In this document: piece after piece, positions 1-10,707 of the stretch
How the letters are laid out: each line of letters starts with the position of its first letter
How positions within the stretch are numbered: the stretch's first letter is position 1
Source: Acidobacteria bacterium 13_2_20CM_57_17
GTDB lineage: Bacteria > Acidobacteriota > Terriglobia > Acidiferrales > UBA7541
Assembly: GCA_001914785.1 (NCBI GenBank)
Contig: MNDE01000179.1
Coordinates: forward strand, 1-64,000
Reading direction: 5' to 3'
DNA length: 64,000 nt
Notes under the pieces: model-generated
Databases searched by the model: none
Told to the model about the DNA's origin: nothing
What the model saw: the letters and a program-made list of their open reading frames with translations, nothing else
Position numbers and translations under genes: made by a program

Positions 1-1058
1 GTACTCAGACTCCCTGTTTGAACACTAGAGACGACGCTGGGACTTACGACAACGCCAGGAGGTACGCCAGATGGGCTAGAACCGAGATAATGGTCCGGAC
101 GCGGCAAGTTGTTCGTGACATAAGCCTGGTTGGTAAGCCCAGAGTTGTTTCCGGTATCCAATCCCGGTCCAACGGCAATGCCTGCATTTACGGTAGCGGG
201 GTTCGGAGTGCAGCCAGGAACCGCTGGAGCGTTGCCGCTGCCGTCCTGTCCGTCAATGCGGTACTGATTCGAATTGGCGCCCTGGAAATTGCCGACTTGC
301 CCTCCCAAACTCAGAGCTCCTTGAAAATTGAGGCCAAAGTTGACCGGCGTGACCACATACTGCAGGAGCTTTTGGCTGCCGTTGGGCAGTACCGCAAGCG
401 CGGTGATTTCATATATTTGCTTCTGCGTTGGTGGAAGGACCGGACCTGGCACGTTTCCGACCGCTGGGGGCACGACTATGCTGGCCGGAATGAGCCCTGA
501 ATCGTAGTAAAGGGGAGTTGCAGCATTAGCCGCCGCCAGGCCGGTATTATCGACGTTGGCCTTCAGCGATTGTTTTGTGGCCGCATTGATGCGCACCCAT
601 TTATAAAGCGGACCTGTGCTTCCCGCCGCTGTCCAAATGGAGGCGACATAGGTCTTGGTTGCCGCGCCGAGAGCGCCCAAGATAAATTCCTTGTCAAACT
701 CTGTATCTGGGTAAAGCGCCATAAGGGCGGCGCCAGCCGGTTCTCCGACAGCTGGATTCGTGATGTAAACGACCTGATTTGTAGGCAGGTAGGCGTTGGG
801 CGGCACTCCTACCAACGGAAGAGCGATGGGGTTGGGGTCGGTCGGCACGAGCCGCCCTCTTGCCTCCTCGATGCCTGCTCCGGCGGCGAACGAGGCGCTC
901 AAGGTTGTCCGGTAGTTGCCGGCCAATGAGCTCTCCGTTCCCGAAGAAACCACCAAAGAGATGGCTATCGCGCTGATCAGCAGTAGAACGAAGATGGCGA
1001 TCAGCAAGGCGATTCCAGATTCGGACCGCGTTCTGTGAATTTTGCGAGAAGTTTTCAT
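1..1058 (-). CDS. PilX-like pilus assembly protein, partial (C-terminus beyond left window edge)
   Basis: Minus-strand translation from ATG at 1058: MKTSRKIHRTRSESGIALLIAIFVLLLISAIAISLVVSSGTESSLAGNYR, a PilX N-terminal-type hydrophobic segment; no stop before window edge. Confidence 0.75.
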   Translation of the reverse strand, partial: MKTSRKIHRTRSESGIALLIAIFVLLLISAIAISLVVSSGTESSLAGNYRTTLSASFAAGAGIEEARGRLVPTDPNPIALPLVGVPPNAYLPTNQVVYITNPAVGEPAGAALMALYPDTEFDKEFILGALGAATKTYVASIWTAAGSTGPLYKWVRINAATKQSLKANVDNTGLAAANAATPLYYDSGLIPASIVVPPAVGNVPGPVLPPTQKQIYEITALAVLPNGSQKLLQYVVTPVNFGLNFQGALSLGGQVGNFQGANSNQYRIDGQDGSGNAPAVPGCTPNPATVNAGIAVGPGLDTGNNSGLTNQAYVTNNLPRPDHYLGSSPSGVPPGVVVSPSVVSSVQTGSLS

Positions 1059-1072
1059 GGGGTTCCTCGTCC

Positions 1073-1846
1073 TCACTTATTTGGATTGTGGCGACGGCCA
1101 CGGCCGTTTAGCTCGACCAGGCGCAATTGTTGGTTGGTAGTGTCCCTCAGAAGCGACTCCACGATCAGCGTGACTCCCACGTCGCGGATATTGCAGGGCG
1201 AGTTGGGCACAGATATGCAGCCCGCTGCGCCAAGTGGGGGATCAGGGATGTAACTGAAAATGGGAACCGCATTTCCACCGGGAAACATAGCCGGGTAATT
1301 TACTTTGATCGCCGCGATCTGGGCGGCCGGCGCGTTATTCATCACGTTCCGGATATAAGGAGCCAACACCGCTAGCGTGGGAGCGTTAGGATCCCCAGCC
1401 ACCTTGGGCGTGACCCCCCGCATCAGCGTTGTTCCCTGCAACTGATAGCGCACCCAGCGGACCACGCCCGTTCCGTCATAGTCCTCTTCGAAGATCACGT
1501 CAAAGGGGCCTGGGGTGATACACGTGACTCCAACTGTGCATACGACTAAAGGATAGTTCGGACTCCAGGCCACGGGACTCTGCGCATAACCACCCACGGG
1601 CGGCAGCAAGGTAAAATGGTTCGCGGGCGGAAAGCCGGAGTCGCTGGCCTCGCGCACGATCTGGTCCACGCCCAGCCGCGCCTCTTGGAACGTATCAAGA
1701 AGCTGCGACTCCGCTTGGTTGCGTTTTTGGGAAAGATCAAGGAGACCGAACATTGCTCCCGAAAGGATGACAAAAATCGCAACCGAAACCATCAGCTCGA
1801 TGAGCGTGAATCCTGTTTGTTTCTTCTGTCTCGGTGTGGGTCTCAT
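1073..1846 (-). CDS. PilW-like minor pilin (prepilin N-terminal methylation motif)
   Basis: MRPTPRQKKQTGFTLIELMVSVAIFVILSGAMFGLL: class III prepilin signal GFTLIE; start trimmed from ORF 1073..1957. Confidence 0.8.
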   Translation of the reverse strand: MRPTPRQKKQTGFTLIELMVSVAIFVILSGAMFGLLDLSQKRNQAESQLLDTFQEARLGVDQIVREASDSGFPPANHFTLLPPVGGYAQSPVAWSPNYPLVVCTVGVTCITPGPFDVIFEEDYDGTGVVRWVRYQLQGTTLMRGVTPKVAGDPNAPTLAVLAPYIRNVMNNAPAAQIAAIKVNYPAMFPGGNAVPIFSYIPDPPLGAAGCISVPNSPCNIRDVGVTLIVESLLRDTTNQQLRLVELNGRGRRHNPNK

Positions 1847-2364
1847 CTTTCCACCATGCTGTCGAGATTTACTGGCAAAAGGGGGGAGTTGCCGCTCACC
1901 CGGCGTACCCCGAGAATGAAACGCCTGCCTCCGTTCGCGAGCGTCCAGGACGCCCATCGAACGTCATAACGAACTTGGGTTGGATCGTTGGGATCAAACC
2001 ACGTGAAGCTGTAGCCGGGCACCGCGCCACCGGCAAAATTGATCACCTGTGCGCCATTGAAAGTGACGACGGGATTGCCCACAAACACGCCTGGCGTTGC
2101 CGGATTGCCAAGCGTGCAGTTGTTACCCCCCGCATCGACGAACGTGGTGTTAGCCAGCGGCTGTTCGATGAGTTGGTTCATTTCACTTTGTGCCAGCACC
2201 AACGCCGTCGAATCATCTCGATTGGCGGTGTTCAAACGAATTGAGAACGGCACGAGCTGTGCCACCGCCAACAATCCTACCGTCATCATCATCATCGCGA
2301 TCATCATCTCGATGAGAGTAAATCCGCGTTGTTTGCTCCCGGGACTTTCCGTGATTGCTCGCAT
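1843..2364 (-). CDS. PilV-like minor pilin
   Basis: MRAITESPGSKQRGFTLIEMMIAMMMMTVGLLAVAQL: prepilin motif; overlaps next gene by 4 nt. Confidence 0.78.
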   Translation of the reverse strand: MRAITESPGSKQRGFTLIEMMIAMMMMTVGLLAVAQLVPFSIRLNTANRDDSTALVLAQSEMNQLIEQPLANTTFVDAGGNNCTLGNPATPGVFVGNPVVTFNGAQVINFAGGAVPGYSFTWFDPNDPTQVRYDVRWASWTLANGGRRFILGVRRVSGNSPLLPVNLDSMVER

Positions 2365-2383
2365 AGCTTTCTCTTGTTTCCCC

Positions 2384-2992
2384 TTAGTGAAGAAAGGACC
2401 ACGTACCCGTGGCATCCGCCTTCCACAACTGCATGGACCCTGAAGGTAGAACGATAATGGCCCGGTAGCCCGCCCCGGGCACGCCAGTGTTGCCCACAAA
2501 CGAGACTAAAGCTCCCGCTGGCGGTGGATTCACCGCGCCGCGCTGGTCAAACTGGACCTGCGCAACAGTGTTACCAAGTGGAATCAGCGGGCCGACATTT
2601 GCCGCGAGGACTAGGTTCGCGACTGCGCCCGGCGGAAGGCTGGCGGGGGCAAGCAGCGTGATGACGGGGCTAAAGGTCACCTGCCGCTCCACATTGTCTG
2701 GAACTAAGTTTGCGATGGAATCCGTCCAGGCAATGGTTCCCACTGGCGCCGGCCCAATCACACAATTTATAGGGGTGTTGCGGCGAATGGCTTCGTATCG
2801 GGTGTACTTGATGACATTCGCCATGCTCGTCGCCGCGTTAGAAACTTGGTAATATTGGTATGCACGCATGAAGGATGGCGCGGTGATGGCGCTTGTGATC
2901 AGAATCACGACCAGGACCACCACGAGCTCGATCATGGAAAAGCCGCGGCTTGGACTGTGCCTCCCGCGGCTGTATCTGCCAAAGTTCTTCAT
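2384..2992 (-). CDS. GspH/FimT family pseudopilin
   Basis: RGFSMIELVVVLVVILITSAITAPSFMRAYQYYQVSNAATSMANVIKYTRYEAIRRN, FimT/GspH-like. Confidence 0.8.
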   Translation of the reverse strand: MKNFGRYSRGRHSPSRGFSMIELVVVLVVILITSAITAPSFMRAYQYYQVSNAATSMANVIKYTRYEAIRRNTPINCVIGPAPVGTIAWTDSIANLVPDNVERQVTFSPVITLLAPASLPPGAVANLVLAANVGPLIPLGNTVAQVQFDQRGAVNPPPAGALVSFVGNTGVPGAGYRAIIVLPSGSMQLWKADATGTWSFLH

Positions 2993-3554
2993 TTTCTTCT
3001 CGCAGCCTCATGTTCGCCCTGTCCGGCAAAAGGGACTTCCCGGGCGCAAGCAGTAACTTCGAACATAGAAAACGGCACTTTCGCTGCCAACCTAGAGTGA
3101 GAGCTAAACCATTTATTTGCTATGATTTATATCGATCCTACACAGGGACTCTCTCCCATAGCTAATTCGCATGGGGTAGAAACGTAACAAGTTGGGTGGA
3201 AGGCCTTGGAACTCTCCGCTAACAATAAATGGTTGTCCTTTGCGGTGGTTCGCTTCAATTTGGGATGACTTAGAACCCTGAATCTCCGCTCTTGAGAAAC
3301 GTTCAGGTCATCCAGATTGACCCTCTATTCGTTCCCCGATAATGGCCAAATGACACCGTTGCCCGTCACCCCAGTTTGTTGCTGCCAGTTTCAGCGCCTT
3401 GGTATACTCGGAGAGCAAAAGATGCATTCTGGAAACGGCCCCCGCAACACATCATTTCCCGAGGAACCTTTCACGAGTGGCCGGAAGAAGTGCGCGCTAT
3501 CCATCTCTGCGCGCGTTGCCCGCTTTGCGGGCTGTCAGAAACGAGGAGAGCGGT

Positions 3555-4727
3555 ATGGCTGGATATGCCGGAGTCGATTACATCGATTTTGATTCGCAAC
3601 TGAATGACGAAGAAAAACTGGTGCGGCAGACCGCGCGCCAATTCGTGGAAAACGAAATCGTCCCTATCATCGAAAAGCACAGCCGCGAAGCAACGTTTCC
3701 GAAACAATTGATTCCCCAGCTCGGTGAGTTGGGATTTTTTGGCGCGAACCTGCACGGTTACGGCTGCGCGGGAATGTCCAATGTCGCGTACGGATTGATG
3801 ACTCAGGAATTGGAGCGAGGCGATTCCGGCCTCCGCAGTTTTGTTTCCGTGCAAGGTGCGCTGGTGATGTATCCGATTTATTCCTATGGCAGCGAGGCGC
3901 AGAAGAACAAATGGCTCCCGCTTTTGCAGCAGGGCGAGGCCATAGGCTGCTTCGGATTGACGGAGCCGCAGTTTGGTTCGAATCCCGGCGGAATGCTGAC
4001 CCGTGCCGTCAAGAAGGGCCATAAATACGTCCTCAACGGTGAAAAGATGTGGATCACCAGCGGCTCGATCGCTGACGTAGCCGTGGTCTGGGCCAAAGCG
4101 GAAGACGACAAAGTCCGCGGATTCCTCGTGGAAAAAGGTGCGCCGGGATTCAAGGCCTGGGACGTCCATGGAAAATGGTCGCTGCGCGCTTCCGTGACCT
4201 CCGGATTGGCTTTTACAGATTGCGAAATCCCGGAGGAAAATCTTCTGCCCGGCGTTGTCGGCCTGAAGGGGCCGCTGAGTTGCTTGAACCAGGCGCGCTA
4301 TGGAATCGGATGGGGCGCTCTGGGAGCGGCGATGGCGTGCTACGACACGGCGCTGCAGTATGCAAAAACCAGAAAACAATTTGCGAACAAGCCCATCGCT
4401 TCCCATCAATTGGTGCAGGAAAAACTGGCGTGGATGATTACGGAAATCGTGAAAGGCCAATTACTGGCATTGCACGTCGGCCGATTGAAAGACAATGGCA
4501 AAGTCGATCCTTCGCACATTTCCATGTTGAAAATGAACAACGTGGCGATTGCACTGGACACGGCGCGCAAGGCCCGCGACATTCTGGGCGCCAACGGGAT
4601 CGTCGACGATTACTGTATCATGCGGCACATGAACAACCTCGAGAGCGTGTATACCTACGAGGGCACCAACGACATTCACAAGCTGGTGATCGGTGAGCGC
4701 ATCACCGGCATCGCCGCGTTTGTATAG
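3555..4727 (+). CDS. Acyl-CoA dehydrogenase family, glutaryl-CoA dehydrogenase-like
   Basis: ACAD motifs (ERGDSGLRSFVSVQGALVMYPI, GCFGLTEPQFGSNPGGM, YEGTNDIHKLVIGERITG); start chosen at MAGYAGVDYIDFDSQL. Confidence 0.85.
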   Translation: MAGYAGVDYIDFDSQLNDEEKLVRQTARQFVENEIVPIIEKHSREATFPKQLIPQLGELGFFGANLHGYGCAGMSNVAYGLMTQELERGDSGLRSFVSVQGALVMYPIYSYGSEAQKNKWLPLLQQGEAIGCFGLTEPQFGSNPGGMLTRAVKKGHKYVLNGEKMWITSGSIADVAVVWAKAEDDKVRGFLVEKGAPGFKAWDVHGKWSLRASVTSGLAFTDCEIPEENLLPGVVGLKGPLSCLNQARYGIGWGALGAAMACYDTALQYAKTRKQFANKPIASHQLVQEKLAWMITEIVKGQLLALHVGRLKDNGKVDPSHISMLKMNNVAIALDTARKARDILGANGIVDDYCIMRHMNNLESVYTYEGTNDIHKLVIGERITGIAAFV

Positions 4728-4849
4728 AGATCCAAAGGCGACAACAATCCGCCTCTGCGCTTTTCATCCTGCCCATCTCCATGCAGACTGAATCTTGTAT
4801 GCTAATGGGGCGCTGGCCGTGGTCGGCGCACTTACAGGAGCATAGTCCC

Positions 4850-6136
4850 ATGCGTCCAGAATTCGTCGTTTCGATTCGATTTCTCCGCTGTTTCGCCGTT
4901 GCAACGTTGCTGGCCTTGATTTTCAACTGCGAAGTTGTTCGGGCCCAGGCGAAAACTTCTGCAACGCCCGGGAATCCCAAGATCCGCGCGATCACTGCCT
5001 TCATCAATCTGGACCGGCCACGATACCAGCAAGACGTGGCGGACGCGCTGAAAATGCTGCGGCGCGCGCAGACGACATTCGAATCGCGCGGCTACCAGGT
5101 GCAAACCATCCGCATCGCGACGCAGCCGTTTCCGGAATACACCAAAGGCCTGACGAAAGAACAGGCCGTCGCGTTTTTCAAGGATTACGACGCGCTGGCC
5201 GTGAAGGAGAATTTCGCGGCGTCGATCGGTCCGGCGATGCTGCACTCCGGAGACAGCGAGTCGCAAGCAGATCTGCTCGGCGAGATTCTGAGTAACACGA
5301 AAAAACTGAATGGAAGCGTCGTGGTGGCCGGTGAGGACGGTGTTCGCTGGAACGCCGTAGGCGCGGCGGCGCGCGTAATGAAAAAACTGGAAGAAACCAC
5401 GGAGCACAGCCAAGGCAATTTTCGTTTTGCGGCGATTGCGATGGTGCCGCCTCTGACGCCTTTCTTTCCGGCCGCGTATCACACCGGCTTCGGACATCAG
5501 TTCGCGATTGCGCTGGAATCGGCGAACCTTGTGGCCGCAGCGTTTAAAGACTCGCGCGATCTTGGGATGGCCAGGCAGCGGCTGATCGATTCGCTTGCGG
5601 CAATTGCTTTCGACGTAGAAGGACACGCAGGGCGCGTCGATCAGGAAACCGGCTGGACGTACATGGGAATCGATCTATCGCCGGCGCCCTCCGGAGACGT
5701 TTCCATTGGTGCGGCCATCGAAAATCTGACGAGGCAACCAGTCGGCATGAGCGGAACGCTGACGGCGGCGGCAACGATTGCGTCGGCGGTGAAAGACGTC
5801 AAAGTGAAGCAAACCGGATATACCGGCTTGATGTTGCCGATCCTCGAAGATACGCGACTGGCGCAGCGCTGGAGCGAAGGACACATTTCCATCGATGCGC
5901 TGCTGAGTTATTCCGCAGTGTGCGGCACGGGGCTGGACACGGTTCCGCTGCCCGGCGACGTTAGCGCGGAACACCTTTCGCTGATTATCGGCGACATGGC
6001 GAGTCTAGCCGTGAAATGGCACAAACCGCTTTCGGCGCGCCTCCTTCCTGTTCTCGGCAAGGGCTGGGGTGAAATGACGGAGTTCAATGATCCGTTCCTT
6101 GTGAATGCCAAGCTGCAGTCGCTGGACGTGAAGTGA
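4850..6136 (+). CDS. DUF711 family protein with signal peptide
   Basis: Signal peptide then KIRAITAFINLD...FRFAAIAMVPPLTPFFPAAYHTG, DUF711-like. Confidence 0.6.
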   Translation: MRPEFVVSIRFLRCFAVATLLALIFNCEVVRAQAKTSATPGNPKIRAITAFINLDRPRYQQDVADALKMLRRAQTTFESRGYQVQTIRIATQPFPEYTKGLTKEQAVAFFKDYDALAVKENFAASIGPAMLHSGDSESQADLLGEILSNTKKLNGSVVVAGEDGVRWNAVGAAARVMKKLEETTEHSQGNFRFAAIAMVPPLTPFFPAAYHTGFGHQFAIALESANLVAAAFKDSRDLGMARQRLIDSLAAIAFDVEGHAGRVDQETGWTYMGIDLSPAPSGDVSIGAAIENLTRQPVGMSGTLTAAATIASAVKDVKVKQTGYTGLMLPILEDTRLAQRWSEGHISIDALLSYSAVCGTGLDTVPLPGDVSAEHLSLIIGDMASLAVKWHKPLSARLLPVLGKGWGEMTEFNDPFLVNAKLQSLDVK

Positions 6137-6320
6137 TGTTTCAGTTCTAAGTTGTAAGTTGTAAGTTTTATGCAAGAAAAGAAGCAAGATGGCTTTAACT
6201 GAGCTTCGCATGACTGGTGAGCCCGACAGGATCGGGGCAGGTCGGCGGTGCGTGATTTGTGATTCGTGATCCGTGGAAGAGTAGTTCCAGAAGGGGGAAA
6301 ATACCCCACCCCCCGGTTTC

Positions 6321-6420
6321 GCGTAAATGTTGCATCTAAAGGATTTAGGCTGCGCGTAAGTCTTTTGTTTGCAACACTTGGGCGGGGAGGCGCGTAAATG
6401 TTGCAGATAAAGGACTTGGA
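6321..6420 (+). repeat. Short direct repeats GCGTAAATGTTGCAnnTAAAGGAYTT (two good copies, one degenerate)
   Basis: gcgtaaatgttgcatctaaaggattta at 6321, gcgtaagtcttttgtttgcaacact at 6354, gcgtaaatgttgcagataaaggactt at 6392. Confidence 0.6.
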
Positions 6421-6435
6421 GAAGATAAAGCAACG

Positions 6436-6720
6436 AAGTGCAGTAAGGACGCAACGAGGTAAGGGAAGGGCTTGGAGCAAGGCCAACTCAACGCCCCGAG
6501 ATGCTCGGGGCTGGCGGGATATCCGCTCCATGACTGGAGCTTCGATAGTCCGTGGACAGCGGTCAGTCAAGACATTGACAGGAAGCGTAAATCGGCGCGC
6601 GATGAAAGGCCGGCGGGGATGTGGAGCGAGAATCACGCGGAAGAATAGCATGGAAGTAAGGTTTGGCTAAGCGTTTTGCAGTGAACGGTCGAAAATGAGC
6701 GTTGAACGGCAATTCTGGGA
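6436..6720 (+). repeat. Dispersed repeat copy 1 (bipartite; partner of 51832..52115)
   Basis: gtaaggacgcaacgaggtaagg...~210 nt...atagcatggaagtaaggtttggctaagcgttttgcagtgaacggtcgaaa. Confidence 0.6.
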
Positions 6721-6858
6721 ATTGGAAGGGAATTAGAAATCAGAGATCAAAAATCAGGGATCAGAGAGAAGGGAACACGGCGAGACGGGACGTCCGGATA
6801 AGAGGCGGTTGAAGGGTTTCGGCGATTCGAGTGTCGCATGACTCCAGAGAGTTCTAGA

Positions 6859-7326
6859 TCAAAGAACGACAGCGTGTGCGAAATGCAGTTTCTTCGTCCG
6901 CACGACGCGACCATTTCTCGTCTCCGTTAGGACACCAAGGAGATACGGTACTCCCGATATTGAGTCAACCTGCTCACGCCCGAATCGTCCGCGGAACGAA
7001 AACTCGGTTCCATCTAGAGAGACTGTTCGGAATGAGAATCCTTGAGAAGAGAGGTGTGACGACTTAAAGTGAAAGTGCGATTTACCAGCGTGGAAGCCAG
7101 GTTGGGTCGGTGCATCGGGGTCATTGGCCTTTGGCGCGATTGGCCTTCCATCGGGACTGATCACTAGCGCAACCGAGTTGGATTCTGGACTGTCCCAAGC
7201 CGCGTAATACAGGCCATAAAAATCCCCTGTCTGCTGCTTATGTGTTTGTTGGGTTGCAGAAACAGCCGACGCCTGAACAAGAACCAATGCGAAGAGCAAC
7301 ACTAATCGCAAAATCCTACAATGCAT
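6859..7326 (-). CDS. Small secreted hypothetical protein (candidate immunity protein; see findings)
   Basis: 155 aa with N-terminal signal MHCRILRLVLLFALVLVQASAVSA; no family recognised. Confidence 0.5.
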   Translation of the reverse strand: MHCRILRLVLLFALVLVQASAVSATQQTHKQQTGDFYGLYYAAWDSPESNSVALVISPDGRPIAPKANDPDAPTQPGFHAGKSHFHFKSSHLSSQGFSFRTVSLDGTEFSFRGRFGREQVDSISGVPYLLGVLTETRNGRVVRTKKLHFAHAVVL

Positions 7327-7357
7327 CTAGCTTCTCCGTAACAAGCTCCGCTATCAT

Positions 7358-7914
7358 TTATTGCAAGCGACCGACGCTGCACACCGCTCTATAACTGGCA
7401 GCCAGGTTTATCTGAGCTGACCGGTTTCCGGACACCATCTGGAAATGTGGAGGATCGTTCGTAACACGACCGAATCCAAAAATTTCCATTATTGTCTGCA
7501 TCGTCGAGAAGCCAGGGTCCCTGTTTATATCTACCGCTTGGCCGGCCTGGTGCGGCGAGGCTCCCACCGCAGCGGCTGGATTCGACCCAGACCCACCCCC
7601 CACCATCAAAGCCGACTGGTTGCCATACTTGGCTGCCGATTGATTGCCCCAGTTGGAAACCAGACAGAGCTGTCGTAGTGAGCGTCATACTGAAAATTCA
7701 AACCTCGACCAGCCTTGTGAAGTATCGGATACGTCCAGTGAGCGTTGAGATTGGCGTTGTTGATGGTTTCGGGACCGCCACTGAAAGAGCCAAAAGGAGG
7801 AGTGCCGGTGGCGACCTGGGCGGAGGCTGGAAGGCCAGAAAGCAGGAGAAAAACAAAAAGCAGATCCCTCGCTGTGCTCGGGATGACACCCGCTACCTTG
7901 TTTGCGATTTTCAT
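7358..7914 (-). pseudogene. Collapsed Rhs/YD-repeat gene: N-terminus (7606..7914) plus M15-peptidase-like C-terminal tip (stop at 7358) in a different frame
   Basis: Frame 1: LLLSGLPASAQVATGTPPFGSFSGGPETINNANLNAHWTYPILHKAGRGLNFQYDAHYDSSVWFPTG, typical acidobacterial Rhs N-terminus; shifted frame: NWGNQSAAKYGNQSALMVGGG...SPHQAGQAVDI...DPPHFQM with SxHxxGxAxD and PHF M15-type motifs. Confidence 0.6.
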
Positions 7915-8705
7915 AGAGCACCAAACGTGCTGGCGGTAAGGCCGGAGTTGAGGGCGACGGAGTCTGCCTGGAAATCGAGGATGAGCGAGTTGTTTAGGAA
8001 TTTCTGAACGTGATGAGGGACCTGGGCGCCATTGACCGTTCGATAGTCGCTGAAGTTGATTTCAACGGGGAAGTCGACGAGTTCGTTGTCGTCTGGATGG
8101 ATATTAAAGGCGATGGAGAGCGGGAGAAATGAAGTGGAGTCGAGGTAGAGGTCAATTTGACTAAGGTGTTGGAGAATTTCTGCTGTCTTTGCGGGTTTGC
8201 TGTACGGCTGGAAAACTGCAACGTGCTCGACGACGTGGCCTTCGTGGGTTTCATGGCCGACGTAGGTGGCGACGTAGCCAGAATTGGACAACCTGCGAGC
8301 GATGGCGAAGGCGGGGAAGAACCACGAAGGCTCAGTGAGCAGATTGTGGAAGGCGATGGGGTGAGCAACGCGGTCGGGGCCTGACCAGCTTCCTGTGGGA
8401 GAGGCTGCGGAGAGATTCTCGACTTCGCTGCGCTGGCCGGAAGATAAGGTGAGATCCATGCGGGCCGCGCCTACGGCAAGGGCTTTGAAGATGCCCGTGC
8501 CGAATTCGTCGTCGGAACCGGCGATGCGGCGGGCAGTGCCGGAGAGGGTGACGTCGGTGAGCGACGTGTTGCCTTGCAAGGCGGCGAGCGACTGCTGCAG
8601 CAATTGCGAGGCCTGAATGCTCGAAGAGGCGGTCTGTTGCGCGGCGGAAGGGATTACGAGCAGAACGCAGAGTCCAAAGGAAAGTATAAGGCGAGCAGAT
8701 CGCAT
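7911..8705 (-). CDS. Secreted hypothetical protein of a type seen beside acidobacterial Rhs genes
   Basis: Signal peptide MRSARLILSFGLCVLLVIPSAAQQ; SFLPLSIAFNIHPDDNELVDFPVEINFSDYRTVNGAQVPHHVQKFLNNSLILDFQ; overlaps the Rhs remnant start. Confidence 0.55.
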   Translation of the reverse strand: MRSARLILSFGLCVLLVIPSAAQQTASSSIQASQLLQQSLAALQGNTSLTDVTLSGTARRIAGSDDEFGTGIFKALAVGAARMDLTLSSGQRSEVENLSAASPTGSWSGPDRVAHPIAFHNLLTEPSWFFPAFAIARRLSNSGYVATYVGHETHEGHVVEHVAVFQPYSKPAKTAEILQHLSQIDLYLDSTSFLPLSIAFNIHPDDNELVDFPVEINFSDYRTVNGAQVPHHVQKFLNNSLILDFQADSVALNSGLTASTFGAL

Positions 8706-8758
8706 ACGACCTCCGGATGGTCCACGGACCGAGCAGGAGCGTGGAGGCTGTAATTTGC

Positions 8759-8790
8759 CGTCCCGCAAAACCGTGCGGGACGCAAAAACC
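8759..8790. repeat. Hairpin repeat copy A (GTCCCGCAAAACCGTGCGGGACGCAAAA)
   Basis: Inverted repeat cgtcccgc/gcgggacg; second diverged copy at 9027. Confidence 0.6.
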
Positions 8791-9026
8791 GCGTCAGGGT
8801 GGGAGACGCGAGCCGGAAAATACAAAGTTCCATGTAGAGCGTCAATCAGGTGAATATCTGAGAAGCGAGTTAGCTGGTCTCGCAGGGAAGGTACTAAGGG
8901 AGTACTAGGGGAAGGGAATCCAAACTAGAAGTTAGAAAGCAGAAACTAGAAGTCGAGGAGAAGAAAGAGAAGAGAGATTTCTCCTCGCAAGAACCGCTCG
9001 GAGAGGAAGAGGTCTCCCGTTGGTCG

Positions 9027-9059
9027 ATCCCGTAACCCCGTCCGGGATGCAAAAGACGC
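9027..9059. repeat. Hairpin repeat copy B (ATCCCGTAACCCCGTCCGGGATGCAAAAGACGC)
   Basis: Inverted repeat atcccg/cgggat plus shared GCAAAAR tail with copy A. Confidence 0.6.
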
Positions 9060-9092
9060 AAATGACGGGCGGGTAGCTGACGGAGCGAAGAA

Positions 9093-9108
9093 CTGGGCTA
9101 AAGCCCAG
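9093..9108. repeat. REP-like palindrome CTGGGCTAAAGCCCAG followed by CCTCTACAG
   Basis: 7-bp perfect inverted repeat just downstream of the 9154 gene stop (minus strand). Confidence 0.55.
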
Positions 9109-9153
9109 CCTCTACAGGGCCGGAGGATGCCAGCGGGGCCTGGAAGGCGAGCT

Positions 9154-10707
9154 TTAGATGGACCAACCCTGGCGGTACTCGCGGCGCAAGAAGTCGTTGG
9201 CTTGCAGGGCGTTGGTGACACGCATGTTGGAGCCGTCATAGTAGATTTTCTTTCCGGCGCGCAGGGCGACGATGCCGAGGAGCATCACCTCGGTGAGGCG
9301 CGCGGCGTACTCGAACGGGCAGGAAGCTTCGACTTTTCCCTTGCAGGCGTCCACCCAGTTCATTTCGTGGAACTGGCCGGCGATGCGCGGAAGCTTCTGC
9401 GGAGGCTTGCCAAAGGATTCGTGGAGCGACTTGGGCAAGAGGCGGGGCTTGAAGCCGTAGGTGTCGTACAGGAGCTTGCCCTTGCTGCCGATGAGCAGCG
9501 CGCCGCCTTCCTTGTTCAACTCCTCATCGCCGAGCTCTTCGGGCTTGTTGGGCTTGAGGCCGCCGTCGTACCAAGTGAGCTTGACGGGCGGCATCGCGCC
9601 GCGCGCGGGAAACTCGTAGAACGTCAGCGTGGCGCTCGGGTAAGAGACGCCATTGAAAGGCGTCGAGACGGTTTCAACGCTGGTCGGGAAGCCCAGGTCA
9701 AGCGCCCACATAGTATGGTCGATTAAATGAGCGCCCATGTCGCCGATGGCGCCGACGCCCCAATCTGTCCAGCCGCGCCAATTGAAGGGGTGATAGATGG
9801 GATGGTAGTCCACGTTGGAGGCGGCAGTGCCAAGAAAAAGATCCCAGGCGAGGCCGCCCGGAACGGGGTAGTCGCCGCAAAGGGCGGCGGCCAGGCGCGT
9901 GTTGACGTCGCGGCCGCTCCACTTAAGAGGTTCGGGGCCGTCCTTCAGCGGCGCGGGGCGCGGGACGCCCTGAGGCCAAAAGCCGAGTGGGCGATTCGTC
10001 CAGATGTGGACTTCGCGCACGTCGCCGATGGCGCCAGCCCAAACGTATTCGACGGCGGTGCGTCCTTCGTCCGAAGAGTGACCCTGGTTGCCCATCTGCG
10101 TGACGACTTTGGTTTCTTTAGCGCGGCGGGAAAGCTTGCGCGCTTCTTCGACCGACCAGCAAAGCGGCTTCTGGACGTAGACGTGTTTGCCGAGTTCCAT
10201 GGCCGCCAAGGCGATGGGTGCGTGCATGTGGTCGGGCGTGGCGACGACGACGGCATCGATGTCCGTCTGGTGTTCAAGCATGTCGCGAAAATCGGTGTAG
10301 CGCCGGGCTTTCGGCACGTGCTCGGTCTTGAGCTTGACCATCAAGTCCACGCGCGCCTGGGCCTTGATGGGATCAAACTCGCCGGGCAGCTCGCCCGGAG
10401 GCGGGGGGGCGGGCAGCTCGATGCGCTTCTTCAGGCGCTCGATGTCGATATCGAGCCGGTCGAGCCGCTTGCCAGCATAGCCCCAGTCCACATCGCACAG
10501 CGCGACGATGTTCTGGCTTGCGAGGTTGATGAGATTGGCCCGGCCCATGCCGCCAACTCCAACGCTGGCGATGTTCAGCGTATCGCTGGGCGGAGTGAAT
10601 CCACGGCCGAGAACGTGCCTGGGAACAATGGCGCACGCGGCGCCTCCAGCGGCAACTTCTGTGAGAAACTTGCGGCGCGACATTTCTTTCTTCTTGCTCA
10701 TCGGCAT
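9154..10707 (-). CDS. Gfo/Idh/MocA family oxidoreductase with Tat-type leader
   Basis: [89 protein letters not shown]. Confidence 0.9.

What the first reader, a model, noticed from the sequence alone, without database searches (positions are those of the whole stretch)
6859..7914. Collapsed Rhs gene with an M15-peptidase-like tip and an adjacent small secreted protein as candidate immunity factor
Seen: 7606..7914 (minus) has a signal peptide and an Rhs/YD-repeat N-terminus (VATGTPPFGSFSGGPETINNANLNAHWTYPILHKAGRG...YDSSVW). Within about 50 nt, in another frame, it abuts NWGNQSAAKYGNQSALMVGGG...SPHQAGQAVDI...DPPHFQM. The spacing of SxHxxGxAxD and PHF resembles the zinc-ligand motifs of M15 (VanX/VanY/endolysin-type) peptidases. 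A 155-aa protein with a signal peptide starts 32 nt after the tip's stop. Established: polymorphic Rhs effectors carry variable C-terminal toxin tips followed by immunity genes, and peptidoglycan-targeting tips need periplasmic immunity. Inference: the repeat core was deleted, leaving the N-terminus, tip and immunity gene; the immunity gene may be kept as an orphan.
Basis: partly seen in the sequence, partly recalled or inferred. Interest (0 to 1): 0.7.

Follow-up and report, generated by a model that had tools for sequence, protein, structure and literature searches.

The report
Decayed Rhs toxin with surviving neighbour
A soil acidobacterium carries the wreck of a large secreted antibacterial weapon (an Rhs protein) whose middle is missing and whose wall-cutting tip is cut short, while the small secreted protein next to it, in the place where the protective partner sits in intact copies, still looks like a working gene.

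Summary
The sequence features are confirmed. The N-terminus at 7606-7914(-) is the start of a Sec-exported acidobacterial Rhs gene: intact 1,550-2,200-aa homologues exist in the genus and family, with the same LolA-like partner gene upstream. The second frame (7361-7654) carries an M15 peptidase tip. Other acidobacteria have genuine Rhs C-termini with M15 tips; one full-length gene passes Pfam gathering thresholds for both RHS_repeat and Peptidase_M15_3. In the window the Rhs core is gone, the frame changes near 7,640, and the M15 domain lacks its N-terminal subdomain and a loop, so the toxin is a pseudogene. In seven M15-tipped loci the next gene also encodes a secreted or lipoprotein-like protein, in at least three families. 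The 155-aa protein occupies that position and its domain is under purifying selection, but it matches none of those families. Its only relative found is the C-terminal domain of an SGNH hydrolase in a sister species with no Rhs gene of this type. "Orphan immunity protein" is therefore the best guess, not shown. Assembly collapse cannot be excluded without reads. This is a decayed member of a known kind.

The parts
7911..8825 (-). Secreted LolA-like partner gene (304 aa as called from TTG; likely real start near 8753), directly upstream of rhs; stop and start overlap
   Evidence: Same gene precedes rhs in 9 of 11 loci examined; 24-49% identity to the window copy for the eight aligned; Pfam LolA_like in 3 of 9 members, best E 2.3e-5
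7606..7914 (-). rhs N-terminal remnant, 102-aa ORF; homologous part 7660-7818 (QVATGTPPFGSF...YDSSVW)
   Evidence: start of 1,550-2,200-aa Rhs ORFs in relatives
7862..7887 (-). REP-like repeat GTCATCCCGAGCACAGCGAGGGATCT lying in the signal-peptide coding region
   Evidence: one copy in the window, none expected by chance; calling it REP-like is from own knowledge
7605..7645 (-). Frame change and deletion junction: Rhs homology (GSQVWQPV) continues in another frame and meets the M15 frame (YGNQSALM) in the same few bases
   Evidence: frame score reached by 1 of 1000 (best relative) and 0 of 1000 (sum over six relatives) dinucleotide shuffles
7361..7654 (-). Truncated M15 peptidase tip in another frame. 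Zinc-ligand positions conserved: His 7550-7552, Asp 7529-7531, His 7445-7447. N-terminal subdomain and the W-G-G loop missing; stop at 7358-7360
6859..7326 (-). Intact 155-aa secreted all-beta protein, candidate former immunity gene
   Evidence: domain dN 0.33, dS 3.3; low-confidence all-beta models

Best explanation
This is the remains of a Sec-exported Rhs polymorphic-toxin operon of an acidobacterium, originally in the order LolA-like partner, rhs, immunity gene. The intact Rhs would have been exported to the cell surface. Its tip, an M15 zinc peptidase of the endolysin kind, would have cut stem peptides in a competitor's peptidoglycan, while a secreted immunity protein protected the producer's periplasm. 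In the window the rhs gene has lost its repeat core (by comparison about 4-4.5 kb; inferred), has a frame change, and keeps only a fragment of the M15 domain, so the toxin is dead. The downstream 155-aa secreted beta protein is most likely the former cognate immunity protein, still maintained as an orphan that could protect against neighbours with the same tip. Shown: the remnants, their families, the intact relatives, the follower pattern, and selection on the domain in the 155-aa protein. Inferred: ancestral order, deletion size, enzyme target, and the immunity function.
For: N-terminus and partner gene conserved in intact operons. M15-tipped Rhs genes exist: one full length with RHS_repeat E 2.7e-25 and Peptidase_M15_3 E 5.8e-6, others as Rhs C-termini. 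In seven loci the tip is followed by a protein with a signal peptide, lipobox or N-terminal hydrophobic segment. Four followers form one family (E 6e-9 to 3e-29) and two another (E 7e-7). Window: gap 31 nt, strong hydrophobic leader, dN/dS about 0.1 for the domain, restricted to two genomes of the genus. The zinc-ligand His, Asp and His are invariant across seven tips including the window. The core is not elsewhere in the MAG apart from a separate intact Rhs gene at 36-47% identity (C130) and one short fragment (C153).
Against: The 155-aa protein is not homologous to the followers of intact M15-tipped Rhs genes. Its only relative is fused to an SGNH hydrolase in a genome with no match to this Rhs N-terminus or tip. 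dS is saturated, and selection on the window branch alone cannot be separated. No expression or binding data exist.
Confidence: 0.62

Rival explanations
1. The 155-aa protein is an ordinary envelope protein or glycan-binding module with no immunity role. It came to lie behind the Rhs wreck by chance, and in the sister species the same domain became a C-terminal module of an SGNH hydrolase.
For: Its only relative is the C-terminal domain of an SGNH hydrolase (55% identity) at the conserved ATPase-SGNH-PhoH locus, where genus orthologues lack it. No similarity to known followers.
Against: Position 31 nt behind an M15 tip on the same strand, with a signal peptide, as in seven other M15-tipped loci. 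Very narrow distribution, as expected for immunity genes.
Confidence: 0.27
2. The collapse is an assembly artefact of the MAG: the living cell has a full rhs gene, and the assembler joined the N-terminus to the tip across a short similar sequence.
For: The window's genome is a 77.6% complete MAG in 191 contigs. Rhs genes assemble poorly. The junction sits in short internally similar sequence.
Against: The flanks are unique and the missing core is not elsewhere in the MAG. There is also a frame change, and the tip has a further internal loss, so lesions are multiple.
Confidence: 0.15
3. The short M15 frame is still made, by restart at the ATG at 7604-7606 that overlaps the stop of the N-terminal ORF, as a small functional enzyme or orphan tip.
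For: The TGA stop and the ATG overlap; zinc-ligand residues kept.
Against: The product would lack a signal peptide, the N-terminal half of the M15 fold and the W-G-G loop shared by relatives.
Confidence: 0.04

Closest known systems
Polymorphic toxin systems with RHS repeats and C-terminal toxin tips (Zhang et al. 2012, PMC3482391)
   Same: RHS scaffold, variable C-terminal enzyme tip, immunity gene directly downstream; peptidoglycan-directed peptidase tips are described there
   Different: M15 and VanY do not occur in the held text of that paper. Here export is by a Sec signal with a LolA-like partner gene, and the window copy is decayed
VanY-like carboxypeptidase toxin tips coupled to an immunity protein (PMC12419801)
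   Same: VanY/M15-type peptidase used as a polymorphic-toxin tip with a linked immunity gene
   Different: There the tip is fused to a lipobox cystatin-like N-terminus, not to RHS repeats
M15 peptidase domains in type VI effectors (WHIX effectors PMC12135965; Neisseria PMC10210955)
   Same: M15-like peptidase used as an antibacterial effector domain
   Different: Delivered by T6SS without an Rhs shell; no T6SS hallmark was seen in the Rhs N-terminus here
Phage L-alanyl-D-glutamate endopeptidases of M15 (2vo9_A; LysB4, 6akv_A)
   Same: Same M15 family signature; weak profile hits E 0.013 and 0.036, PHROG endolysin 2649
   Different: Phage lysins are free-standing; here the domain is an Rhs tip, truncated in the window

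Membership tests
Rhs polymorphic toxin (intact) | Rhs N-terminal region with export signal | tested here: met
   70% identity to the start of an intact Rhs gene
Rhs polymorphic toxin (intact) | RHS/YD repeat core | tested here: not met
   Absent between 7,660 and 7,600 and not elsewhere in the MAG except a different Rhs gene and a short fragment; hence a pseudogene, not an Rhs toxin
Rhs polymorphic toxin (intact) | C-terminal toxin domain in frame with the core | tested here: not met
   Tip is in another frame
M15 metallopeptidase | Zinc-ligand signature SxHxxGxAxD and a later His | tested here: met
   Invariant His35, Asp42, His70 in alignment with six intact or near-intact tips
M15 metallopeptidase | Complete catalytic domain | tested here: not met
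   N-terminal subdomain (FAPDxAA...LNxxGIxPxI) and W-G-G loop missing; PHROG 2649 match starts at profile position 64 against 10 in the relative; Pfam M15_4 below gathering score
Cognate immunity protein of an M15 Rhs tip | Gene directly downstream on the same strand | tested here: met
   31-nt gap
Cognate immunity protein of an M15 Rhs tip | Directed to the periplasm or envelope | tested here: met
   Hydrophobic N-terminal leader by a simple hydropathy score; no dedicated signal-peptide predictor was available
Cognate immunity protein of an M15 Rhs tip | Homology to followers of intact M15-tipped Rhs genes | tested here: not met
   no significant similarity
Cognate immunity protein of an M15 Rhs tip | Neutralises the tip | not testable with these tools
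   needs expression assay

The most novel reading that the evidence does not exclude
Acidobacteriota carry a Sec-exported Rhs system, not T6SS-linked, with a dedicated LolA-fold partner that escorts the Rhs protein through the envelope, M15 endopeptidase tips, and a set of unrelated secreted inhibitor families. The 155-aa protein is a new, minimal inhibitor fold that has been captured both as an orphan immunity gene and as a module of an SGNH hydrolase.
Probability: 0.25. Interest if true: 0.62.

Novelty: new member of a known kind. Interest (0 to 1): 0.4.

Why it matters
The locus illustrates how toxin operons decay while the protective gene is kept. Following it up exposed a recurrent acidobacterial arrangement (LolA-like gene, Sec-type Rhs with an M15 tip, secreted follower protein) that gives several testable toxin-immunity pairs in a phylum where interbacterial competition is, to my knowledge, little studied, and new candidate inhibitors of M15 peptidoglycan peptidases.

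Tried and rejected
Homology of the 155-aa protein to the 289/311-aa followers was rejected (hhalign P 0.05 and 0.38, BLASTP none). Its homologues in plasmids, viral contigs and a genome contigs pattern scan: none except the sister-species SGNH fusion; the genome-contig scan used only two short peptide patterns and is not exhaustive. Structure of the 155-aa domain: all-beta, mean pLDDT 63-69; PDB matches (Tp0751 lipocalin-like, salivary lipocalin, avidins) had E at or above 0.16 and were not used as evidence beyond a hint of a small beta barrel. Pfam, NCBIfam, PADLOC and PHROGs gave nothing for the 155-aa protein. PDB profile search for the LolA-like partner gave nothing. Several weak tip hits were read and found not to be Rhs: other M15-like proteins (L022, L030, L112) and chance matches (for example L023-L026). 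Two further M15-like hits in the phylum (L049, L050) are free-standing secreted proteins.

Full report
Observation. The window lies in contig C108 (69,820 bases) of a 77.6% complete MAG. The nearest named relative in hand is an Acidobacteria MAG, isolate gp2 AA96, which I take to be the genome G009 of the same genus, since contig length and sequence agree.

The N-terminus is a real Rhs gene start. Searched in 89 genomes of the family, it is found in 12 including the window's own. In intact cases it is the start of ORFs of 1,550-2,200 aa, one of which has seven RHS_repeat stretches (E 1.2e-31). In 9 of 11 such loci examined the gene directly before rhs is the same ~270-aa secreted protein as at 7911-8825 in the window, 24-49% identical to the window's for the eight aligned. 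Three of nine aligned members match Pfam LolA_like (best 2.3e-5). So the window keeps the 5' half of a conserved operon, down to the overlapping stop and start codons.

The tip is M15. The 98-aa tip alone finds, in another family of the class, an Rhs C-terminus (...GARSYAWRLGRWLSSDW...) carrying an M15 domain (E 6.5e-7, 48% identity). That relative passes the gathering score of Peptidase_M15_4 (E 3.5e-7), and both match PHROG endolysin family 2649 (2.5e-4 and 3.5e-9). Profile searches gave further M15-tipped Rhs C-termini, including a full-length 1,548-aa protein with RHS_repeat E 2.7e-25 and Peptidase_M15_3 E 5.8e-6 preceded by a similarly placed secreted gene. Across seven tips, including the window, the zinc-ligand His, Asp and His are invariant.

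The window's toxin is dead. Relative to the others the window tip lacks the N-terminal subdomain (FAPDxAAxxxxAxxxLNxxGIxPxI) and the W-G-G loop. Its PHROG match begins at profile position 64 instead of 10. The Rhs homology continues beyond the 102-aa ORF's frame: GSQVWQPV (about 7611-7634) aligns with GSQNWQPT and similar segments just after YDSSVWYP in intact genes. The best alignment score was reached by 1 of 1000 dinucleotide shuffles, and the sum over six relatives by 0 of 1000. So there is a frame change near 7,640 and a deletion junction at about 7605-7625, where the Rhs frame (VWQPV) and the M15 frame (YGNQSALM) share the same bases. The deleted core is about 4-4.5 kb by comparison with intact genes (inference). 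It is not elsewhere in the MAG: the other hits are a different intact Rhs gene on C130 (36-47% identity) and a short fragment on C153. Without reads, assembly collapse remains possible.

What stands behind M15 tips. In seven loci (G345, G477, G157, G236, G261, G136, G159) the next gene on the same strand encodes a protein with a signal peptide, a lipobox or an N-terminal hydrophobic segment. In six of the seven it overlaps or lies within 37 nt; in G136 the tip frame is broken and the gap is 191 nt. Four followers form one family (pairwise E 6e-9 to 3e-29), two form a second (7e-7), and one stands alone. Some loci carry tandem Rhs C-terminal cassettes (L081, L113), as in classical polymorphic toxins.

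The 155-aa protein. It has a strong hydrophobic leader and an all-beta, low-confidence model. It is not similar to the followers above. In 399 class genomes, the genome contigs pattern scan, plasmids and viral contigs its only relative is in G009, as the C-terminal domain of a 416-aa SGNH hydrolase (Lipase_GDSL_2 E 1.4e-27). The SGNH gene is widespread in the genus, often beside the ATPase and/or PhoH genes, but lacks the domain elsewhere. Over 134 aligned codons 80 third positions differ against 38 and 36 at the first and second; dN 0.33, dS 3.3 (saturated), so the domain has been kept by selection. Its third-position GC (0.50) is lower than that of the upstream gene (0.67), compatible with a recently acquired cassette.

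Mechanism and verdict. Most likely this was a LolA-like/rhs/immunity operon whose M15 tip cut peptidoglycan stem peptides outside the cytoplasm. The rhs gene has decayed and the 155-aa gene survives as an orphan immunity protein. The main rival is that the 155-aa domain is a general envelope module, as its SGNH fusion suggests. The window locus itself is a decayed member of a known kind. VanY-like tips in polymorphic toxins are on record with a cystatin-like N-terminus (PMC12419801), M15 domains in T6SS effectors (PMC12135965, PMC10210955), and orphan immunity genes are an established idea (for example PMC10539506 and PMC12247911).

Noticed in passing
window 7911-8825 (-); L034 3039-3845, L035 8561-9385, L036 2045-2842, L037 10739-11569, L038 1145-2299, L039 10993-11844, L040 2722-3510, L041 5678-6526; L108 1775-2521 similarly placed: A secreted LolA-like protein is the constant gene directly upstream of Sec-type Rhs genes in this acidobacterial family; it may be a dedicated envelope carrier or chaperone for Rhs.
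   Followed up: partly
L041 (G045:C34) 1-6526: The rhs gene is separated from its LolA-like partner by an insert that looks like an IS1595-type transposase plus a DNA cytosine methyltransferase, another ORF and a Vsr-like endonuclease.
   Followed up: no
L081 (G477) 5815-10096; L113 (G159) 1-3457: Tandem Rhs C-terminal cassettes with different tips and follower genes, typical displaced-tip arrays, in Acidobacteriota.
   Followed up: no
window 7862-7887 (-): A REP-like palindromic repeat lies within the sequence coding the Rhs signal peptide and is read through in frame (VIPSTARDLL).
   Followed up: partly
L019 8164-9414: SGNH hydrolase with a C-terminal domain 55% identical to the 155-aa window protein, at a genus-wide conserved ATPase-SGNH-PhoH locus where other species lack the domain.
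   Followed up: yes
G000:C130 (L085 1983-7733): A second, apparently intact Rhs gene of different type in the window's own genome, beside an IS110-like transposase.
   Followed up: partly
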